From: Candidatus Peribacteria bacterium
GTDB lineage: Bacteria > Patescibacteriota > Gracilibacteria > Peribacterales > Peribacteraceae
Length of the DNA stretch: 64,000 bases
Direction of reading: 5' to 3'
NCBI GenBank assembly: GCA_023245935.1
Contig: JAHFJM010000001.1
Span: 496,001-560,000, forward strand
Positions within the stretch are counted from its first letter, which is position 1; the number at the start of each line of letters is the position of its first letter. The notes below the pieces were generated by a model. It ran no database searches. It was not told the DNA's origin and saw only the letters and a program-made list of their open reading frames with translations. The position numbers and the translations under genes were made by a program. Below are positions 13,273-47,841 of the stretch, piece after piece.

Positions 13273-14133
13273 TCAACGAAATGAGCATCTGGCAACCGTA
13301 CCCGTCGACAAGGTTCTTCCATCTACGGATTTCAGTTCCAGATCTCCCGCGTGAATATCGAACTTCAATTCCGGTCTCTGCTTCTTGATTACGCCGGTCA
13401 AAAGTCTCCTGAAACTGTCGGGGGTATCGCCATGCGCATAACCATTGAGCAGCAGGAATGACGGATGCTCCGAGAGGATGGCGCAGCACTGCTCTAAAAG
13501 CGGCGCAAGATCTCGTTCCACTCGCCACGTTTTTCCGGAAGGGGAGTGACCGAATGCGGGAGGATCGAGAAGAATCGCATCGTAGGTCTTCCCGCGCTTC
13601 CGTTCGCGTGCGACGAAGGTCGGTGCATCGTCAAAGATCCAGCGAATGCCTGTTTCCGGGATCGCATTCAACAGTGCATTCTCTTTCGCCCAGGTGATCG
13701 CCGGTTTCGACGCATCGACGTGCGTGACGAAGTGCCCGTCCTTCGCGAATGCGATGCTCGCGCCACCCGTGTAAGCAAACAAATTGAGCATCGTGAGCGG
13801 TCGACCGGATTTTTTTGTGATCATTCTCATCCATCGCCAGTTCTCTTCCTGCTCTGGGAAAACACCCGTGTGCTTGTACGGTGCAAGACGTACCGTGAGC
13901 TTGAGATCGTTGAAGTCGATCGTCCAGAATTCCGGAAGCGTTTTGTTCATTTTCCAGTTTCCTTTCCCTTTCTCACCCTCATAGACAGCATCTGCACTGT
14001 CCCAGAGTTCCGGATTTGACGCAGCGCCGACTGCGGACGGATCCGGTCGAATCAACTTGTATGTTCCCCACTGCTCAAGCCTTCTGCCTTGTCCAAAGTC
14101 GAGGAGGGAGTAGATGTTTTGCATCTGTTCCAT
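13273..14133 (-). CDS. RlmI-like class I SAM methyltransferase
   Basis: This 286-residue Rossmann methyltransferase resembles the catalytic part of RlmI/RlmK-type 23S rRNA methyltransferases but lacks the N-terminal PUA domain. Motif I is LNLFAYTGGASIAFA (about residue 118), the acidic residue is in VTHVDASKPAI (about 138), and motif IV is ILLDPPAFGHSPSGKTW (about 188). The FPEQEENWRWM region is also typical. The substrate is probably rRNA or another RNA. The frame starts at 14133; an ATG at 14124 is also possible because TAGAAT lies seven bases before it. It converges with ABC-F across a hairpin repeat. Confidence 0.88.
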   Translation of the reverse strand: MEQMQNIYSLLDFGQGRRLEQWGTYKLIRPDPSAVGAASNPELWDSADAVYEGEKGKGNWKMNKTLPEFWTIDFNDLKLTVRLAPYKHTGVFPEQEENWRWMRMITKKSGRPLTMLNLFAYTGGASIAFAKDGHFVTHVDASKPAITWAKENALLNAIPETGIRWIFDDAPTFVARERKRGKTYDAILLDPPAFGHSPSGKTWRVERDLAPLLEQCCAILSEHPSFLLLNGYAHGDTPDSFRRLLTGVIKKQRPELKFDIHAGDLELKSVDGRTLSTGTVARCSFR

Positions 14134-14172
14134 TCTAGAGCATTTGATCGTTCAAGAGTGTTAGGCAGTATC

Positions 14173-14201
14173 TTGTCAAAAGACCAAAGAGCCATTAGGC
14201 T
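14173..14201 (+). promoter_or_regulatory. Predicted promoter of helicase-like operon
   Basis: TTGTCA (14173-14178), a 17-nt spacer, then TAGGCT (14196-14201), nine bases before the ATG at 14211. It gives the two-gene unit its own promoter. Confidence 0.45.
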
Positions 14202-14210
14202 GCTCTACTT

Positions 14211-16604
14211 ATGGAATCTCCTGATTCAAAACTTCCAGAGAGGCTTTACGAGCCTTTGAGTCCTCCGACGGAGGCTCCTGAAATCGGGAAAGCTGCGGGA
14301 CGAAAAACGCAGAGGTCTCCCGCCGAGAGAATCTACGGAGAATTGCGCGGGAAAATCGCCGATGTTTTTCCGGACAATGACGAAGTTGCATGGTCGTACA
14401 GGGATGAGACATTTGCAGTACAGACCATCGAGCGTCCCCTCGATGCGTATGACGATTGGTTCGAGAAGAAGTTTCAGGGGTCTGATGATTTCAGCAAGCT
14501 GTTCACCAGACGACTGTTTCTCGTATGGGAAGAACTGAAGGAGGAGCAATACGTCGTGAATGGGGATCAACTTTGGGAGCACCAGAAGGCGCTGTTTGCA
14601 TGGGCTGCACTGAATATTTGCACCGGCATGCGTGAGGAGATGGCGAATTTGTTGCTCCGTTCTCCGTATGGCAGCGGCAAGAGCAAGGTGACCGGACTCA
14701 TGATACGAGCGTTCCGCGATGCGCAGCTCGATTTGATGTTGTTACAGGGCAAAGATCATAAAGAAATTCCGACGGGTGCGCTCATCGGCAAGCGCAAGGA
14801 ACACCTGATTCAGAATGCGGTGGGAGAGCAGTATGCCGTGTTGGATTCCGAGCACCTCGAGCGGGCGGAGATGAACCGGCACTGGAAGGATCTTGCGGCA
14901 ATGTACGGTTCGCTCTTCACGGATCTTTTCCCGCAGCCGAAGAAGGCGAGTGATCCGTTCTATGCAATTTTCGAGTCTGAATTTGAAGATGGGTCGAGTG
15001 CCGGGTCGATCGATGCTCGTCTCTCGGCATACCTGAAGGCAACGGGCAGAACGATCGGGAAGCGAACCAAACCCGTCTCTGACATGCTGTCGGCGTTCAA
15101 GCAATTGATTGACGGTGAGATCGTTCTCATCCTCAATGAAGAAAATATTCCGGTTCCGGTTCCCGCGCAATTGCGTGACGATTGCACGGAGAGCGACGTG
15201 CGAACGGGTCTCACGGGAGATTCCGCATTCGCGCTTCGTGAAGGCGAGCATTACCGCATCAAGGCATCGGACAGACATCTGTCACCCGACCGATCGACGC
15301 ATACGACAAAGGTGAATGCGGACGATCCCGCTCAGTTTGCGATCGTCCACGGAACCGCACTGACCAGAAATCCGGAGACGATCCGTCGCGATATCCGCGG
15401 GGAAATCGCCGAGAGATGCAAAGGCTTGTTCCTCGATGAGGCGGGGCTTCTGAACCCGGCAGTGATCGGAGATTCCGTCACGCAACTCGTATCTCACGAG
15501 CCCATCGTGATCGGCGTGACCGGTCAGGATAAAGGCGTTGCCGGTTGGCAGCGTTCACCGTCGATTTCCGAAGCGAAGATGATCGAACTCGGGCTCATGA
15601 AACCGGTTTCCTATGCAGGCATCGGTGATCCGGAGAATCCGCCCTCAGCAGGATCTGAGGAAGCATGGCAAGCGTATGAAGAAGCAATGTTCGAGGATTA
15701 CCAAACGGCGGAGATTCTCGGCATCAGCCAGCCGCATGAAGTCGATACCGTCGTGGTGCTGAAAGCGGCGCGCGTGCACGAGTACGCAAAGCGCATTCGT
15801 CTTGCGCATGAGGCGAGGAACGTGCCGGTGAACGTCTTCATCTATTCGACCGGTGCCGGCAACAGGAAGACTGAAGTCCTGAAAGCGTTCAAAGCGCCGA
15901 AGAAGAAGAATGAACCGCGCCGCATTCTCGTTGCCGAAGACAAACTGATTGCCGAGTCGCTCACGATCCCGAATGCACAGTGTTACGACATCCTCGATGT
16001 CGTCAGTGATTTCGATATGGATCAGATTCGCGGACGGCTGGGACACGTTCGCAATACTGATATCGAACAGGAACAGGCGGTTGCTCGCACGGTGATCCGT
16101 CAGCAATTTTTGCATAAAGGCAGAGACCCCTACGTCCGCACCGCTGCTCGCAAACAGGGATACGCACTGCCGGATGAAGATGCGGCGTGGAGACCGCTCC
16201 ACTCGATGATCGACCGAAAGTCACACGACATCGATGCCGCACGGAAGGAACTGAAAAAGGTGAAGGCTTTATCCATCCCGGATGCTCCCGTTGCGCGCAG
16301 ACGCAAGATGAGTGCCAAGGGTTCGATTCCGGCATTCGTCGGAACCGAACTGGGATACAGAAACCCCCATGCGAAAATGTTGGATGACCGTAAGAAAGAA
16401 AAAGAGAGGAAAAAGAGAGAGAGTTTGCTGAAAGCGAGACAGCAGCAGGAGCGGCTGGAAGAGAAAGAGTTGGAGGCATTGCTGCAAGTTCCCGCCTCCC
16501 GACCGAAATTTTCTGAGCATGCATCCGGTTCCAAACCCCCCGTCGAGTTTTCGTCGCTTGGCGACATTCCGTGGTTCAGGAAGCACAAGTCAATTTATGA
16601 ATAA
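14211..16604 (+). CDS. Divergent SF2 helicase-like ATPase
   Basis: This 797-residue protein has superfamily 2 helicase features. A Q-motif-like LWEHQKALF precedes motif I, RSPYGSGKSKVTGL (GKS near residue 155). Motif II is GLFLDEAGLL (DEAG, about 407), and a motif III-like IVIGVTGQD follows. In the second RecA-like half, NVFIYSTGAG, ILVAEDKLIAESLTIPNA (motif V, about 575-590) and DQIRGRLGHV (motif VI, about 604) are visible. About 250 residues lie between motifs I and II, far more than usual. Motif VI lacks the standard final arginine (GRLGHV instead of GRxGR). A Lys/Arg-rich coil (about 723-760) precedes the C-terminus. The stop overlaps the next start (ATGAATAA), so the two genes are translationally coupled. 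Not recognised as a named family. Confidence 0.75.
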   Translation: MESPDSKLPERLYEPLSPPTEAPEIGKAAGRKTQRSPAERIYGELRGKIADVFPDNDEVAWSYRDETFAVQTIERPLDAYDDWFEKKFQGSDDFSKLFTRRLFLVWEELKEEQYVVNGDQLWEHQKALFAWAALNICTGMREEMANLLLRSPYGSGKSKVTGLMIRAFRDAQLDLMLLQGKDHKEIPTGALIGKRKEHLIQNAVGEQYAVLDSEHLERAEMNRHWKDLAAMYGSLFTDLFPQPKKASDPFYAIFESEFEDGSSAGSIDARLSAYLKATGRTIGKRTKPVSDMLSAFKQLIDGEIVLILNEENIPVPVPAQLRDDCTESDVRTGLTGDSAFALREGEHYRIKASDRHLSPDRSTHTTKVNADDPAQFAIVHGTALTRNPETIRRDIRGEIAERCKGLFLDEAGLLNPAVIGDSVTQLVSHEPIVIGVTGQDKGVAGWQRSPSISEAKMIELGLMKPVSYAGIGDPENPPSAGSEEAWQAYEEAMFEDYQTAEILGISQPHEVDTVVVLKAARVHEYAKRIRLAHEARNVPVNVFIYSTGAGNRKTEVLKAFKAPKKKNEPRRILVAEDKLIAESLTIPNAQCYDILDVVSDFDMDQIRGRLGHVRNTDIEQEQAVARTVIRQQFLHKGRDPYVRTAARKQGYALPDEDAAWRPLHSMIDRKSHDIDAARKELKKVKALSIPDAPVARRRKMSAKGSIPAFVGTELGYRNPHAKMLDDRKKEKERKKRESLLKARQQQERLEEKELEALLQVPASRPKFSEHASGSKPPVEFSSLGDIPWFRKHKSIYE

Positions 16605-18894
16605 TGCGGAGAGTTTCCCGCCGGCGTGGGATGAACGGTTGACGCTCGATCTTAGGGATATCGATCTTCCGGATCCCGAAAAATTTCAAAGTTACGAAAA
16701 AATGGCCATGAAGCGCGGCAATACGGCTTTTCTGGAGTTGTTTGCAAGGACACAGTCACGCTTGCCGAAGTTGATCGCCACCGTTCGTTGGTCCATGTTT
16801 CACAGTCCCGGCAAAGATTTTGCCGACGAGATCGGACTCAGCGGTCATGGATACTTTTCAACGGAGAAAGATCTGGAAGGGAGGCAGCCGCAGTTTCATA
16901 CGTATCATTTGCTGTTGAAGCATTGGGAAACAATCGGAATTTCGCGAGGCATTCGCGATCAGTTGCTCGATCTCCTCACGTTTCCTGCTCTCTTCGAGCA
17001 GGAGAATCCGAAAAAGAATCGTACGTACGATCCGCAGCCGACGCTTCTCCAGAAGATCGACGAAGTGCGTTCGGGGGCTCTCGGGATTCTGAACGATTCG
17101 CACGTCACTGCGTTCTACCACCGCATCGGATTCGAGAACGGTCATCCGAATGTGGCAAAGCACTTCCCGAAGTTCTGGAACAAGCTCTGGCAACGGGAGA
17201 AAACAGGTACGGTTCCGATTGCATTGGAATTGCTCGATGTCATTCAGGCGATGTACGCCGGAGAAGATGATGCATCAGCTCAGCTGCGTGTGCTCCGAAT
17301 GGCTGAAGGTAAAGCGCTCTGGATCGAAGCGAAGAAGAATCAGTACCGCGGTCGAGGCATCGAGGAACCACTCTGTGAACTTCTCGCGAAGATGGAGATG
17401 GATCTTGCGGAGAACTTCGAGTGGCACATCGACGACGGAAAAAAGAAGAAGAGTGAAGGCATGACACTGACTGCCGAAGCGCTTCGGGAAGCGTACGACA
17501 TTCCGAATGTTTCCGTACAGAGCTTGATCCAGTGCGAGCTCGTCGACTGGAAGGATATCGAAACCGTTGCCGCCCGCGTCATCGATCCGAAGGCGCTTCA
17601 GACCTTCGAAGTTTCCTGGTATGCCGCGCATTCCGCGGAGAAACAGAGAGTCAGTTTCGGGAATTCTGCCGAACAGGCGATGAAAGAACGCGGTTTCAAT
17701 TACAGAATGCTCTACGATCTACTGATGACGGATGATGAAAAACAATCCACGATGACGAACGTTTCCGATGAGGGTGAGACACGCAACAGACCTGAGAATG
17801 TCATTCGGCACATCATCCATGACAACGCTCAGAGCAGCCAAATCTCCATCGAATCACTCATCAGGATTCTGACTCGTGACGATGCGGCGTATCAGGAACT
17901 TCGGAATCTCTATGTCTCTGAGCGCGAGAGATACTACCGGAGAATCGGCAACAGACTCGAAGGAAACGGCTTGCAGATGCGCATTCAACGTGAGCTTGCC
18001 AATATGTCCATGGGAGAACTTGCGATGCATTTTCTCTCGGCTTCGGAGAAGAAAGACAAGATGACAGTGCGTGCGAAAGATCTTGAGCTGCAGCGACTGG
18101 AACGGAATGAGTTGAAGGATCACCCGATTTCGTTTCGAAGAGTATTCAAAATTTTGGCTGAAGCGATCGCGGAAAGAAAAGAGGAAGCGACAGTCTCTCT
18201 CCGGTCGCTCAACGAATTTCCGGAAGCACTGAAGATCTGGACGACGGTGCAGGAGCTTGCCGAACATTGCGTGAAGGGGATGAAAGGCGCTGCGTACGTT
18301 ACCGAAGCGATGGAAAACTATGCATCGGCGGATTCTCCTGATTGCTTGCGATCGGATCTGATTCTCGATGTCGCATCCGGCACGTTTGTTCCGCCGCTGC
18401 GTTGCTTGCGCGTGATGGCGCAAGGGGTTGCCGAAAAGACACTCTCCCCCGATGTTGTGTTGGATTGGTATGAGCGCTTTCCGCAGCAATTGACGGAAGG
18501 ATGTCAGGTCTTCAGCCCCACATCATTTCAGAAGCCCCTGGCTCGCTTGCTCTGCACGATGATCGGAAGTCTTGATTCCAATATGATCGATTTCTTCAGA
18601 CGGCGGGTGGAGGGACTGAGGGATACGCACGGGACGCAGCTGATTCGCGCCATTGATGAAGGGCACTATGACGCATCAGACTGGGTGAACGTGCGGAAGA
18701 TTCTTCTCGGTGCCGGTTTGAAGTCGGGCAGCATCAAGTGGCAGTTTGCGGAGATGCTTTTCAAGAATGGTCAGAATGTCGATGCGGCTCTCGAGGAACT
18801 TGTGCCGCGGCTGGAGCAACAGGGGCTGGAAATTCATTCCGAAAATTTACCCGGTGTGACACGCGAGGAACTTTTGAAGCACAGAAAAAAGTAG
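16597..18894 (+). CDS. Large helical protein of unknown function, partner of helicase-like gene
   Basis: This 765-residue soluble protein is predicted mostly helical from its composition. It is rich in Glu, Arg and Leu, with no signal peptide or membrane segment. Recognisable sub-regions are only descriptive: an N-terminal DLRDIDLPDPEKFQSYEKMA, a central basic stretch (ERERYYRRIGNRLEGNGLQ, about residue 445), and a C-terminal region with short helical hairpins (about 640-765) that could be an alpha-solenoid. No nuclease, protease or nucleotide-binding motif is evident. The ATG at 16597 lies inside the end of the helicase-like gene, eight bases before that gene ends, which argues for stoichiometric co-expression. 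The frame extends upstream to 16519 only as a shadow of the helicase gene. Confidence 0.7.
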   Translation: MNNAESFPPAWDERLTLDLRDIDLPDPEKFQSYEKMAMKRGNTAFLELFARTQSRLPKLIATVRWSMFHSPGKDFADEIGLSGHGYFSTEKDLEGRQPQFHTYHLLLKHWETIGISRGIRDQLLDLLTFPALFEQENPKKNRTYDPQPTLLQKIDEVRSGALGILNDSHVTAFYHRIGFENGHPNVAKHFPKFWNKLWQREKTGTVPIALELLDVIQAMYAGEDDASAQLRVLRMAEGKALWIEAKKNQYRGRGIEEPLCELLAKMEMDLAENFEWHIDDGKKKKSEGMTLTAEALREAYDIPNVSVQSLIQCELVDWKDIETVAARVIDPKALQTFEVSWYAAHSAEKQRVSFGNSAEQAMKERGFNYRMLYDLLMTDDEKQSTMTNVSDEGETRNRPENVIRHIIHDNAQSSQISIESLIRILTRDDAAYQELRNLYVSERERYYRRIGNRLEGNGLQMRIQRELANMSMGELAMHFLSASEKKDKMTVRAKDLELQRLERNELKDHPISFRRVFKILAEAIAERKEEATVSLRSLNEFPEALKIWTTVQELAEHCVKGMKGAAYVTEAMENYASADSPDCLRSDLILDVASGTFVPPLRCLRVMAQGVAEKTLSPDVVLDWYERFPQQLTEGCQVFSPTSFQKPLARLLCTMIGSLDSNMIDFFRRRVEGLRDTHGTQLIRAIDEGHYDASDWVNVRKILLGAGLKSGSIKWQFAEMLFKNGQNVDAALEELVPRLEQQGLEIHSENLPGVTREELLKHRKK

Positions 18895-18900
18895 AGAGAT

Positions 18901-20043
18901 CTATGCTTCTTTCCGAAGCATTGCTTCGTAGATTTTCTCCATGCGTTCGGTCACTCTGTAAGGGGCACAGCGCTCGGCAAACGCACGACCGTTCCTGCCG
19001 AATGCTTCCCGCTTCGCCGGATCTGCGAAGAGTTCAGTGAGACGCGCTGCGAAGGCACGAGTGTCTCCGCCCTCGACGATGAAGCCGTTCTCACCGTTTC
19101 GGATCTGCTCGGGAAGTCCCCCGTGATTCACACCGATGACGGGAAGTCCGCACGCAATCGCCTGCATGGTCGTCATCGACTGATTCTCCGAGCGACTCGT
19201 GATTGCGTAGACATCGGTGGCATTGATTGCCTCGATGAGCTCCTTGCCGCGCAGCATGCCGAGAAAACGAGTGTCACTCTCGATACCGAGCGTCTGCACG
19301 CACGCACGAAGTGTGCGCTCCTCTGGACCCGAGCCGATGATCACGAGTTCCGCATCCACAGTCTTCCGCAGGAGTGCGAATGCTTCGAGTAGCTCTCCGA
19401 TATTCTTCTCTCGTGCGAGTCTGCCGAAACACAGCACGGCGAATTTTATGATGCCGAATTTCTGCTTGAGATGTTTTTTTTCGGGCAGAGAACGGAAGTG
19501 ATCCGTCTCGACGGGATTCGAAACGACATCAATGTTCTTCGTGACGCCGTACCTACGGAGCTCATCTGCAACTATGTGCGACGGTGCCGTGACGGAATCG
19601 CATTTCTGGTAGTACTTCGCGGCGAATGTCTTCAATCGTTCCCTTGTCCAATGGTAATCGAGATGGAAATAGTGTGCGTACTCGGCAGGAAGCGTGTGCT
19701 GTGTTCCGAGGAGCGGCACACGGAATCTTCTCGCCGATCGCACCGCTTTGGCTCCGACCGTTCCGAACGTGTGTGTATGGAGGAGATCGGGCCGAAACCT
19801 GTCAAGTTCCTGTTTGATAGAACATGGCAGTACGAAACGGAACGTCGGCGCCCACGGCACTCCGATACTCGGAAGAGAAACATGCCTGCACGGTTCTCCG
19901 TTCCTCGTTCCGGAGCCTTCGGATGGAGCGAAGAGACACGTGGCGTGCCCTTGGCTCTCCAGTTTTTGCATCAGTGTTCTGATCACATCACTGATGCCGT
20001 TCACTTGTGCCGGAGAGAAATCGGAGAAGAATGCAATACGCAT
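18901..20043 (-). CDS. Family 4 glycosyltransferase
   Basis: This 380-residue GT-B enzyme is most like diacylglycerol or phosphatidylinositol glycosyltransferases. The N-terminus is MRIAFFSDFSPAQVNGISD, followed by LLHTHTFGTVG and LGTQHTLPAEYAHYF, which resemble the acceptor region of lipid glucosyltransferases/mannosyltransferases. The donor domain has FGRLAREKNIGELLEAFALL, GSGPEERTLR and SRSENQSMTTMQAIACGLPVI, with the E-x7-E pair altered to E/A at the second position. A glycolipid product is inferred. The ATG at 20043 is used because the longer frame overlaps the DedA-like gene. It is last in the four-gene unit 18901-22054, two bases after DedA. Confidence 0.88.
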   Translation of the reverse strand: MRIAFFSDFSPAQVNGISDVIRTLMQKLESQGHATCLFAPSEGSGTRNGEPCRHVSLPSIGVPWAPTFRFVLPCSIKQELDRFRPDLLHTHTFGTVGAKAVRSARRFRVPLLGTQHTLPAEYAHYFHLDYHWTRERLKTFAAKYYQKCDSVTAPSHIVADELRRYGVTKNIDVVSNPVETDHFRSLPEKKHLKQKFGIIKFAVLCFGRLAREKNIGELLEAFALLRKTVDAELVIIGSGPEERTLRACVQTLGIESDTRFLGMLRGKELIEAINATDVYAITSRSENQSMTTMQAIACGLPVIGVNHGGLPEQIRNGENGFIVEGGDTRAFAARLTELFADPAKREAFGRNGRAFAERCAPYRVTERMEKIYEAMLRKEA

Positions 20044-45447: not shown

Positions 45448-45475
45448 TTGACAATATCGAGAAAAAATGTAGATT
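45448..45475 (+). promoter_or_regulatory. Promoter of Ser/Thr kinase
   Basis: TTGACA (45448-45453), 16 nt, TAGATT (45470-45475), then eight bases to the ATG at 45484. The TTG of the -35 box is the apparent start of a longer frame and should not be taken as a start codon. Confidence 0.6.
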
Positions 45476-45483
45476 ACAACTTA

Positions 45484-47841
45484 ATGTTGGATCACGATTC
45501 ATCACATCAAGACCGTTGGCATCCCGGCGCAGTTGCGCTCTCAGATCCTCCCGGTTCAGCAGCTCCTTCTCAGGTGATCGCTTCGATGGATACTCCGGTT
45601 TCTTCGAAAGCCCCCGGCGACGAAGATTCGGCGGAGACTTTGTTGAGTAAATTTGAATATCTGTACGGTCTTACGAAGGGAGATCCGAGAAGCGAACGTA
45701 TCAGGGAAAGGATCAGCAAGTTTTCATCGGCAGACTTAAGTGCTCACCGCTATCAGGTTATCGCAGCTCTGTCGGGTGAAATTTACGAAGATCCTGCCGC
45801 TCCTCAAGCTGTCGCTCTCCGCTTTCATGAAGCTTCTCCTGCCACCTCCATCATCGAGGCTACCGATGGTCGGAAATTTCCCATTATCGATCCGGAGCTT
45901 GGGAAAGGGGGGCAAGGATTTGTTTTGCTTGTCGAAGATTCCACATTTCCGATCGAAGACGGCAGACATGATCAGGTTGTGAAGGAATGCCCGATCGATG
46001 TGATGGAGAAATCGAGAGGGAAAAAGTGGATTGCCGCCGAACCTGATCCGCAGTCTCAAATTGCGCGTCTTTCACGGGAAGCGAGTATTGCCGAAGAGCT
46101 TTCACGAAAAGACCTGAAGTACATCGCTCCGAAATTTCTGGGGAGAGGAACCCGCAGGACGGTAACGGAAACAGGTGAGGAAAAATTTCATGCGTTCATT
46201 CAGTATGAATTCGCTCGCAGCATGTCGGCACAGCATCTTCGGGACGGCATGGGTGAGGAAACAATGCCTCTACGCGCTTTTTATGATCTGGCACTGCAGA
46301 TGCTCATCAGTACGTATGGTTTCCATCGGGCTACATTCATTCATCGAGATATCAAGCCCGGAAATTTTGTCATCCGGTCTGACGGCAAGGGAACGATGAT
46401 CATCGATTATGGATTTGCGAAGAGGAAGCATGATGATGAAGGCGATGAAGACATGACTGTGCTGACGCAAGCCGGCGTCCTGATGGGAACTCCGCCGTAC
46501 ATGTCTCCGGAACAATTTGATTCTCCCGCATCCGTCGATGAAAAGTCGGATGTCTATTCTCTGGCCGTTACCTTGAATCAATTATTGACCGGTCGTTTGG
46601 TTTTCAAGTGCGCAAATGCGACGGAGTATCGTTTGGCACACTTGAACAAATCTCCAACGGACACCATCGATCATTTGAGGACCCTCGGTCTTCCGGAAGA
46701 AATGGTGACTGCGCTTGCAAACGCTCTTGCGAAAAACCCCGAGCAGCGACCGAGCGTTGAAGATTTGATGACTGTGTTCCTGCAGCATTCAAGTTTTGAT
46801 CGGACATTGAAGCCAAAAGACATGCTTGAAAAAGCGAAGAAGGGTCTGATGAAGCTTCAACTGCCGGAGGAGCTTCTTCAAAAAGTAACAAGGGCGGATG
46901 CCCCGCTTCCTTCAGGATTTCCTTCCAGTCCGAATGATCGGGACGATAAGGGTGCAGAGAGCATGTACTCTGCTCTCAAAGATGCGTATCCGGAACAGGT
47001 GGTCGCTTCCACTCGAAAAGGTGTCGGTCGCGTTCTCCGGTCTGTCGTTGCACTCGGAGTCGCAGCCGTTGCGGCAGGAGGCGGTTATGCCTTCTCGCAT
47101 CGAAATGACGGAAAGGAGAAGGATGACACTATCCCTCCTGTCGTCAGACCTCTTGAACCGGACGTTCCTTCCGAGCCCGTGGCTCAGAAGGTATCTCACG
47201 AGTCAGTACCCGATCAACTTGCAACACCAACGCTATCTGCAGAGCTGCCTGTGAGCGATACAAAGTCCCCAGAGCAACTTGCCGCAGAAAAAATCTTCCC
47301 GTCATCCGATCTTTTTAAGGGAACGGTCAAGGATGGCAAGCTGACCAAGCTTATTCTGTTCTCAGGCAAGTCTTGTGAGATGGCTCCCGAAGCTTTCACG
47401 ACGTATATGAGTGGAGGAGCTGTTCGTATCGTTCAGTTTTCGATGACTATTCCTCAGCTTGCGAAATATTTCGGAATGTCGGAGGAAGCATTGCCTTTGG
47501 ATGCAGTGGCGAAGACGCAAAAATCCGTTACCGCCACTCTTATCGTCAATCCCGGCAATGAATTTATCTTTGCTCCCGAGCGAATGGGATGGGCAGTCGG
47601 TTCGGACAAGGGTGTTTCTGTGTTTTCCAATGCTGAGAAGAATACGTTCAAACCTTGTTTCGGCGAGAATGCTTCCGCGTCACCGATAGCCGGTTTCAGC
47701 GGTAATGAAACGATGTTGAAAGTGCTTCAGGAATTGCCTCTTCCTGAAGAATTTGACGCTTTGGATGAAACTCAAAAAGGATGCTTGAAAGTTATCGGGC
47801 ACTGGAAGAAAGTCTGTGAGACAGTACAGAAGAAGCAGTAA
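45484..47841 (+). CDS. Membrane-bound Ser/Thr protein kinase (PknB-like)
   Basis: This 785-residue protein has a Hanks-type kinase domain (about residues 135-430) after an acidic, disordered start. Seen are the glycine loop LGKGGQGFVLL, the ATP lysine VVKECP (about 166), catalytic loop FIHRDIKPGNFVI (about 285), metal motif as DYG rather than DFG (IIDYGFAKRK, about 306) and activation segment GTPPYMSPEQF (about 340). One transmembrane helix (SVVALGVAAVAAGGGYAF, about 520-537) leads to an outer domain of about 245 residues that is not PASTA-like. The kinase is cytoplasmic and the outer domain probably senses the surface. The convergent DEAD gene ends 5 nt away. Confidence 0.93.
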   Translation: MLDHDSSHQDRWHPGAVALSDPPGSAAPSQVIASMDTPVSSKAPGDEDSAETLLSKFEYLYGLTKGDPRSERIRERISKFSSADLSAHRYQVIAALSGEIYEDPAAPQAVALRFHEASPATSIIEATDGRKFPIIDPELGKGGQGFVLLVEDSTFPIEDGRHDQVVKECPIDVMEKSRGKKWIAAEPDPQSQIARLSREASIAEELSRKDLKYIAPKFLGRGTRRTVTETGEEKFHAFIQYEFARSMSAQHLRDGMGEETMPLRAFYDLALQMLISTYGFHRATFIHRDIKPGNFVIRSDGKGTMIIDYGFAKRKHDDEGDEDMTVLTQAGVLMGTPPYMSPEQFDSPASVDEKSDVYSLAVTLNQLLTGRLVFKCANATEYRLAHLNKSPTDTIDHLRTLGLPEEMVTALANALAKNPEQRPSVEDLMTVFLQHSSFDRTLKPKDMLEKAKKGLMKLQLPEELLQKVTRADAPLPSGFPSSPNDRDDKGAESMYSALKDAYPEQVVASTRKGVGRVLRSVVALGVAAVAAGGGYAFSHRNDGKEKDDTIPPVVRPLEPDVPSEPVAQKVSHESVPDQLATPTLSAELPVSDTKSPEQLAAEKIFPSSDLFKGTVKDGKLTKLILFSGKSCEMAPEAFTTYMSGGAVRIVQFSMTIPQLAKYFGMSEEALPLDAVAKTQKSVTATLIVNPGNEFIFAPERMGWAVGSDKGVSVFSNAEKNTFKPCFGENASASPIAGFSGNETMLKVLQELPLPEEFDALDETQKGCLKVIGHWKKVCETVQKKQ

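What the first reader, a model, noticed from the sequence alone, without database searches (positions are those of the whole stretch)
14211..18894. Two coupled large genes: divergent SF2 helicase-like ATPase plus unknown helical partner
Together these genes use 4.7 kb of a compact genome and are fused translationally (ATGAATAA). The first has clear SF2 motifs (GSGKS, DEAG, AESLTIPNA, QIRGRLGHV), but with about 250 residues between motifs I and II and no final arginine in motif VI. The second, 765 residues, has no motif I can name. A large ATPase with a dedicated helical partner is the form of many DNA- or RNA-handling, defence or competence systems. No neighbouring genes point to a pathway, and a glycolipid cluster converges from the other side.
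Basis: partly seen in the sequence, partly recalled or inferred. Interest (0 to 1): 0.75.

Follow-up and report, generated by a model that had tools for sequence, protein, structure and literature searches.

The report
Swappable helicase plus tandem-HTH gene pair
Two adjacent genes in a small-genome, uncultivated bacterium encode an ATP-driven DNA motor with an unusual active-site change and a partner built from a row of DNA-binding modules; related bacteria carry very different versions of the pair at the same chromosomal site, which suggests an undescribed system for targeting DNA or transcription.

Summary
Gene A (14211-16604, 797 aa) is a divergent SF2 ATPase and gene B (16597-18894, 765 aa) overlaps it by ATGAATAA.

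Neither window protein matches a known family, but relatives resolve both. Members of the A family match ResIII and a phage DNA-helicase family; A residues 500-597 model as an SF2 second RecA domain; in all 13 full-length A proteins the last arginine of motif VI is histidine ([GN]R[LQ]xxH). B is a degenerate array of about five to seven XRE-type helix-turn-helix units; one relative is fused to a complete sigma-70 factor.

The pair is found in one Peribacteria family only (of 74 genomes, 16 have A, 14 have B, 12 have both: adjacent in 11, split over contig ends in one). A and B diverge in step (Mantel r 0.94). Within one genus, four different cassettes occupy the same site beside relA/TMTC/ligA, with flanks 76-81% identical and A only 21-29% identical.

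Best reading: a B-targeted SF2 DNA translocase exchanged as an allelic cassette, acting on protein-DNA or transcription complexes, probably in conflict with mobile DNA. The anatomy is shown; biochemistry and target are inferred.

The parts
14211..16604 (+). Gene A: SF2-type ATPase, 797 aa
   Evidence: ORF; family members match ResIII above the curated cut-off and phrog_16 DNA helicase; RecA2 fold match to Mfd/DEAH helicases
14670..14684 (+). Motif I / Walker A, GSGKS (residues 154-158)
   Evidence: G154, G156 and K157 invariant in 13 A proteins
14685..15434 (+). Region between motifs I and II, including a motif Ia-like QN/QQ segment and invariant D337
   Evidence: invariant columns
15435..15446 (+). 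Motif II, DEAG (residues 409-412); D409 and E410 invariant
15708..16001 (+). Second RecA-like domain (residues 500-597), motifs IV-V
   Evidence: Z 7.7, rmsd 2.7 over 88 residues to Mfd; local model pLDDT about 70-75 in most of this part
16023..16055 (+). Motif VI, QIRGRLGHVRN (605-615); histidine 612 at the usual arginine-finger position, invariant in 13 of 13
   Evidence: aligned with RecG QFRGRVGR and Mfd QLRGRVGR
16365..16481 (+). Charged C-terminal helix of A (residues 719-757)
   Evidence: secondary structure
16597..16604 (+). ATGAATAA overlap of B start and A stop
16597..18894 (+). Gene B: tandem degenerate XRE-HTH protein, 765 aa, all-helical
   Evidence: Pfam HTH_31/HTH_3 in relatives
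16792..16941 (+). HTH unit 1 of B (about residues 66-115)
   Evidence: hhalign probability 85 against an XRE profile; 188 shuffled controls reach at most 2.8
17137..17259 (+). HTH unit 2 of B (about residues 181-221)
   Evidence: probability 57
17425..17544 (+). Possible HTH unit (about residues 277-316)
   Evidence: probability 11-13, weak
17662..17739 (+). Possible HTH unit 3 (about residues 356-381)
   Evidence: probability 30-36
17971..18033 (+). HTH unit 4 (about residues 459-479)
   Evidence: probability 27 for the family; i-E 8e-6 in the G024 relative; Pfam HTH_3 E 0.003 there
18304..18447 (+). HTH unit 5 (about residues 570-617)
   Evidence: probability 84; HTH_31 just above its cut-off in a G075 relative in this part of the chain
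18574..18726 (+). Possible HTH unit 6 (about residues 660-710)
   Evidence: probability about 17, weak

Best explanation
A and B form a two-subunit, DNA-directed SF2 translocase. B binds chosen DNA (or DNA-bound transcription proteins) through a row of degenerate XRE-type helix-turn-helix units. A, whose two RecA lobes bind and hydrolyse ATP and whose motif VI finger is histidine instead of arginine, is brought to that site and moves on or remodels the bound protein-DNA complex, most likely transcription initiation or repressor complexes. The pair is exchanged as one allelic cassette between related bacteria, as expected of a system in conflict with mobile DNA. Shown: two-gene unit, intact ATPase motifs, SF2 second lobe, HTH array at profile level, co-divergence, same-site replacement. 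Inferred: physical complex, DNA binding, ATP-driven remodelling, transcription as the target, the conflict role.
For: Unit: of 74 family genomes 12 have both genes, 4 A only, 2 B only (Fisher p 7e-9); adjacent in 11, contig-split in one. A and B distances correlate, r 0.94, p 2e-4. Motor: Walker A, DE and the [GN]R of motif VI kept in 13 of 13; ResIII over cut-off in two members; DNA-helicase PHROG in three of the scanned members; lobe-2 fold match almost only to SF2 enzymes. Targeting: XRE-HTH signal in B. Link to transcription: a full-length B relative fused to complete sigma-70 regions 1.2-4 in a genome that has its own separate RpoD-like factor. A proteins in G001, G002 and G018 are followed by ArsR-type HTH genes instead of B, so the motor is usually next to an HTH gene. 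Exchange: flanks 76-81% identical in nt, cassette not alignable in nt, A only 21% identical where ligA is 84%; AU tests reject genus monophyly of A (p 6e-11, 2e-5, 2e-4).
Against: B is acidic (pI 5.84, net charge about -14), unusual for a DNA-binding protein, so some HTH units may bind protein. The window's own A and B reach no family model; the HTH reading rests on family profiles and several units are weak. Structure models are poor (mean pLDDT 50 and 58) and no complex was modelled. G033 has A with no HTH gene beside it. The sigma fusion is a single case. B also occurs without A (G069, G081). Known defence models do not match.
Confidence: 0.45

Rival explanations
1. An undescribed anti-phage or anti-plasmid defence system: B recognises foreign DNA or a phage regulator and A interferes with it, with no role in normal transcription.
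For: Patchy distribution; very divergent alleles replaced at a fixed site; fast evolution of A (80% aa identity where the adjacent reductase is 98%); the site lies near tRNA-Leu(gag) in several genomes, and in G018 beside a serine recombinase and a Toprim protein; complete Peribacteria genomes lack CRISPR-Cas (PMC4736985).
Against: No significant match to PADLOC models for 24 members other than the sigma domain of one; no nuclease, methyltransferase or other effector domain found in A or B; no known defence genes recognised beside the loci.
Confidence: 0.3
2. Relic or cargo genes of an integrative element (element-encoded helicase plus multi-HTH regulator), kept for the element's own benefit.
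For: Site near tRNA-Leu(gag) in several genomes; recombinase and Toprim gene at the G018 locus; mobile behaviour of the cassette.
Against: No relative in phage or plasmid records or in viral contigs; cassettes hold only A and B, with no recombinase recognised at the other loci; base composition of the window pair equals its surroundings; five of five sampled g32 genomes retain A and/or B at or next to the site.
Confidence: 0.12
3. A lineage-specific housekeeping DNA repair or recombination helicase, as the ligA neighbourhood might suggest.
For: ligA lies a few genes away at the ligA-site loci; SF2 second lobe similar to Mfd and RecG.
Against: 58 of 74 family genomes lack A, and UvrB-, RecG- and Mfd-like genes are all present in the window's genome; no ligA beside the pair in the window; alleles turn over far faster than ligA.
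Confidence: 0.08

Closest known systems
SF2 helicases of the ResIII / Mfd-RecG type
   Same: Walker A, DExx, motif V and motif VI layout; lobe 2 fold
   Different: Histidine replaces the second arginine of motif VI in every member; about 250 residues between motifs I and II; paired with B
UvrB
   Same: A long insertion between motifs Ia and II is known in UvrB (own knowledge); motif V similar by eye
   Different: Profile comparison with the genome's own UvrB-like protein is weak (probability 3)
Type III and type ISP restriction enzymes (LlaGI, LlaBIII)
   Same: SF2 motor guided by a specificity part; weak, non-significant profile hits of A's motif V-VI part to LlaGI and LlaBIII (E 0.15 and 0.62)
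   Different: No methyltransferase, no nuclease, and HTH units instead of a target-recognition domain
XRE / lambda-repressor-like HTH regulators (HTH_3, HTH_31)
   Same: HTH profile match at several places in the B family
   Different: Five to seven degenerate units in one 700-800 aa chain, no single confident unit in the window protein itself
Poxviral early transcription factor VETF (SF2 small subunit plus promoter-binding large subunit)
   Same: Analogous architecture only: SF2 ATPase plus large DNA-binding partner; a single non-significant profile hit of lobe 1 to VETFS (E 0.58)
   Different: No demonstrated homology; different host and polymerase; analogy recalled, not tested

Membership tests
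SF2 helicase/translocase | Walker A GxGK[ST] and DExx motif II | tested here: met
   Invariant in 13 A proteins
SF2 helicase/translocase | Second RecA-like lobe | tested here: met
   Residues 500-597 match Mfd, Prp2, Prp43, Snf2 (Z 6.4-7.7, rmsd 2.2-4.4, 75-99 aligned); model confidence moderate there
SF2 helicase/translocase | Motif VI with two arginines (GRxxR) | tested here: not met
   [GN]R[LQ]xxH in 13 of 13. Described as SF2-like, divergent
Pfam ResIII (PF04851) | Score over the curated cut-off | tested here: inconclusive
   No for the window protein; yes for G033 and G018 relatives (28.8 and 25.4 bits against 22.5)
XRE-type HTH protein | HTH_3/HTH_31 match | tested here: inconclusive
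   Not for window B alone; just over cut-off at one unit in a G075 relative; profile-profile signal at several places above controls
Type III / type ISP restriction-modification | Methyltransferase and nuclease parts | tested here: not met
   No such Pfam domain in A, B or the neighbouring genes that were scanned
ComFA competence helicase | Four-cysteine zinc finger and com gene neighbours | tested here: not met
   A has four scattered cysteines (137, 325, 403, 591) and no CxxC; no com gene in the window neighbourhood by inspection
Known anti-phage systems (PADLOC-DB 2.0.0) | Significant match to a system protein | tested here: not met
   None for the window pair; among 24 members only the sigma domain of the fusion matches MzaA, and it scores better as RpoD
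VETF-like two-subunit initiation factor | Binding to promoters and RNA polymerase | not testable with these tools
   Needs biochemistry

The most novel reading that the evidence does not exclude
A new class of bacterial system in which a long array of HTH modules acts as an exchangeable address label that directs an SF2 translocase with a histidine finger to promoters or invading DNA, with the same array also used as the N-terminal part of an alternative sigma factor; the arrays diversify and are swapped at fixed chromosomal sites like immunity or restriction alleles.
Probability: 0.3. Interest if true: 0.85.

Novelty: new variant of a known kind. Interest (0 to 1): 0.6.

Why it matters
Peribacteria are uncultivated, have small genomes, and the complete ones described lack CRISPR-Cas (PMC4736985), so how they handle mobile DNA is open. 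A 4.7-kb two-gene cassette kept in 1.2-Mb genomes, with very different alleles at one site in close relatives, is a strong sign of a selected conflict or recognition function. If the HTH array sets target specificity, it would be a natural modular DNA-addressing system for a motor protein. The invariant arginine-to-histidine change in motif VI raises a testable question about SF2 chemistry.

Tried and rejected
Single-sequence scans of the window proteins against Pfam, PHROGs and PADLOC gave nothing; only family profiles helped. Scans of viral contigs and tblastn to phages and plasmids found no relatives; the first genome-contig scan with one sequence found none and one with an alignment found five Peribacteria loci. 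Broad alignments were too divergent for pattern scans. Fold search with model B gave no match with E under 0.4 and only short helical hits under Z 7, which mean little at this confidence. Slices of B compared with each other gave only a weak internal-repeat signal (best probability 31; the top rows are overlap artefacts). A first XRE profile used the wrong strand for many of the sequences and was redone. The 797-aa ORF at 45448-47841 has the same length as A but is unrelated. Competence, restriction-modification and housekeeping repair were considered and set aside for the reasons in the membership and rival sections.

Full report
WHAT IS THERE. Gene A (14211-16604) and gene B (16597-18894) are intact and overlap by ATGAATAA. 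A starts 77 nt from the divergent methyltransferase-like gene at 13273-14133, and B ends 6 nt before the convergent glycosyltransferase-like gene at 18901. The window lies in a 1.22-Mb, 99%-complete genome. Named relatives of the pair are all Candidatus Peregrinibacteria/Peribacteria assemblies. In the two sampled congeners the gene order matches the window up to the methyltransferase-like gene and then breaks where A begins, so the pair lies at a rearrangement or insertion point here. Its base composition equals that of its surroundings.

DISTRIBUTION. Single-sequence searches found only one close and three distant relatives. Family profiles found A in 15 and B in 14 of 74 genomes of the same family, with a sixteenth, partial A at a contig end in G062. 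None was found outside this family among 288 genomes sampled from the class. Both genes are in 12 genomes, A alone in 4 (G001, G002, G018, G033), B alone in 2 (G069, G081); Fisher p 7e-9 (the genomes are related, so this is a guide only). In 11 of the 12 the genes are adjacent. In G095 they lie on two contig ends in the order expected of neighbours. Most pairs are A then B with a spacing of -8 to +19 nt. G024 has them divergent, G075 has A-B-B, G061 has B<-A->B->, and G060 has two B genes divergent from A. In G076 B is broken, with its middle part missing, while A is intact.

PROTEIN A. The window protein has no family match, but relatives match ResIII, two of them above the curated cut-off, and three of the scanned members match the DNA-helicase family phrog_16. 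Walker A and DE are invariant. Residues 500-597, the best-modelled helicase part of an otherwise poor model (mean pLDDT 50), match the second lobe of Mfd, DEAH helicases and Snf2 (Z up to 7.7, rmsd 2.7 over 88 residues). Alignment with the genome's own RecG-like and Mfd-like proteins puts A's GRLGH on their GRVGR; the histidine in place of the second arginine is invariant in all 13 full-length A proteins. Whether A still hydrolyses ATP is not shown.

PROTEIN B. The window protein has no family match, and its model is all-helical with mean pLDDT 58. Relatives match HTH_31 and HTH_3 at different places along the chain. A profile built from 27 XRE HTH domains of related genomes, compared with slices of an 18-sequence B alignment, gives probabilities of 85, 57, 36, 27 and 84 at five places and 10-17 at two more; 188 column-shuffled slices reach at most 2.8. 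I read B as an array of about five to seven degenerate XRE-type units; the weaker ones are provisional. B is acidic (pI 5.84), which leaves open that some units bind protein. In G069 a full-length B relative (profile positions 34-709, E 1.5e-71) is the N-terminal part of a 1269-aa protein whose C-terminal part is a complete sigma-70 factor (regions 1.2, 2, 3 and 4). G069 has a separate, higher-scoring sigma-70 gene of standard length, so the fusion is an alternative sigma factor.

TWO A LINEAGES. A tree of 13 A proteins separates the B-associated A proteins from G033, G018, G001 and G002, which lack B (95/96 support, with a long-branch warning). In G001 and G002 A is followed 5-8 nt later by a gene with two ArsR-type HTH domains, and in G018 by an ArsR-like HTH gene (HTH_20 E 0.0012). 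An HTH neighbour for the motor therefore recurs in a different form; G033 is the exception.

ALLELE EXCHANGE. The distance matrices of A and B agree (Mantel r 0.94, p 2e-4), so the two travel and diverge together. They do not follow the species. In genus g32 G033 and G059 have ligA at 84% identity but A at 21%; G059 and G061 have ligA at 76%, A at 29% and B at 25%; in genus g17 ligA is 73% and A 23%. Yet the window A is 50-51% identical to A of two other genera. In genus g32 the cassettes lie between a small basic ORF and relA-TMTC-ligA. In G033 and G059 the flanks are 76-81% identical in nucleotides and the cassette has no nucleotide match; similarity resumes at the end of relA, 7-28 nt after the last cassette stop codon, and ends about 90-110 nt before the A start codon on the other side. 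AU tests reject one clade per genus for g32, g17 and g1 (p 6e-11, 2e-5, 2e-4). Differential loss from an ancestral tandem array (G061, G075 and G060 have extra B copies) is an alternative to transfer, but also implies long maintenance of divergent alleles. Several loci lie near tRNA-Leu(gag), and in G018 a serine recombinase and a Toprim protein are beside it.

MECHANISM. The most economical reading is an SF2 motor (A) directed by an HTH array (B). The sigma fusion and the ArsR-type neighbours point to transcription or its regulators as the place of action, and the allele exchange points to conflict with mobile DNA. Complex formation, DNA binding, ATP hydrolysis and target are inferred, not shown. 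The strongest rival is a defence system with a different mode of action; no effector domain was found, and no known defence model matches.

COMPARISON WITH THE KNOWN. As a motor A works like SF2 translocases, but it fails one defining motif and is described as SF2-like. It lacks the methyltransferase and nuclease of restriction systems and the zinc finger of ComFA. Poxviral VETF is an architectural analogy only. Five literature searches on the features, the lineage and analogous systems returned no description of this pair; absence from that library is not proof.

VERDICT. Real, conserved in one family, undescribed in the libraries searched, with a defined signature and unusual evolution; function open. 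Interest 0.6.

Noticed in passing
L067:6968-10777 (+), genome G069: A 1269-aa alternative sigma-70 factor whose N-terminal ~680 residues are a B-type tandem-HTH array; wecA-like and other neighbours look shared with the second B-like gene of G024 (L134:6097-8535).
   Followed up: partly
window 45448-47841 (+): 797-aa protein with a eukaryote-type Ser/Thr kinase core (HRDIKPGNF, DYG) and a hydrophobic stretch before the C-terminal part; unrelated to gene A despite equal length.
   Followed up: no
L011:6909-14582 (genome G018): Gene A next to an ArsR-like gene, a 352-aa orphan, a serine recombinase overlapping tRNA-Leu(gag) and a Toprim protein: a likely integrated element near ligA.
   Followed up: partly
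L066:6839-11347 (genome G081): Two divergent, mutually distant B genes side by side with no A gene found.
   Followed up: no
L060:9605-11361 / L072:12379-14135 (genome G076): B gene broken into two ORFs with the middle part missing while A is intact: probable decay of B.
   Followed up: no
L010:944-1165, L059:7396-7617, L064:3597-3799: Conserved small basic ORF (MSRIRQREIHARRKRK...) on the minus strand marking the left edge of the cassette site in genus g32.
   Followed up: partly
window 14133-14211 against L135 and L136: Gene order is conserved with two congeners up to the RlmI-like gene and breaks where gene A starts.
   Followed up: yes
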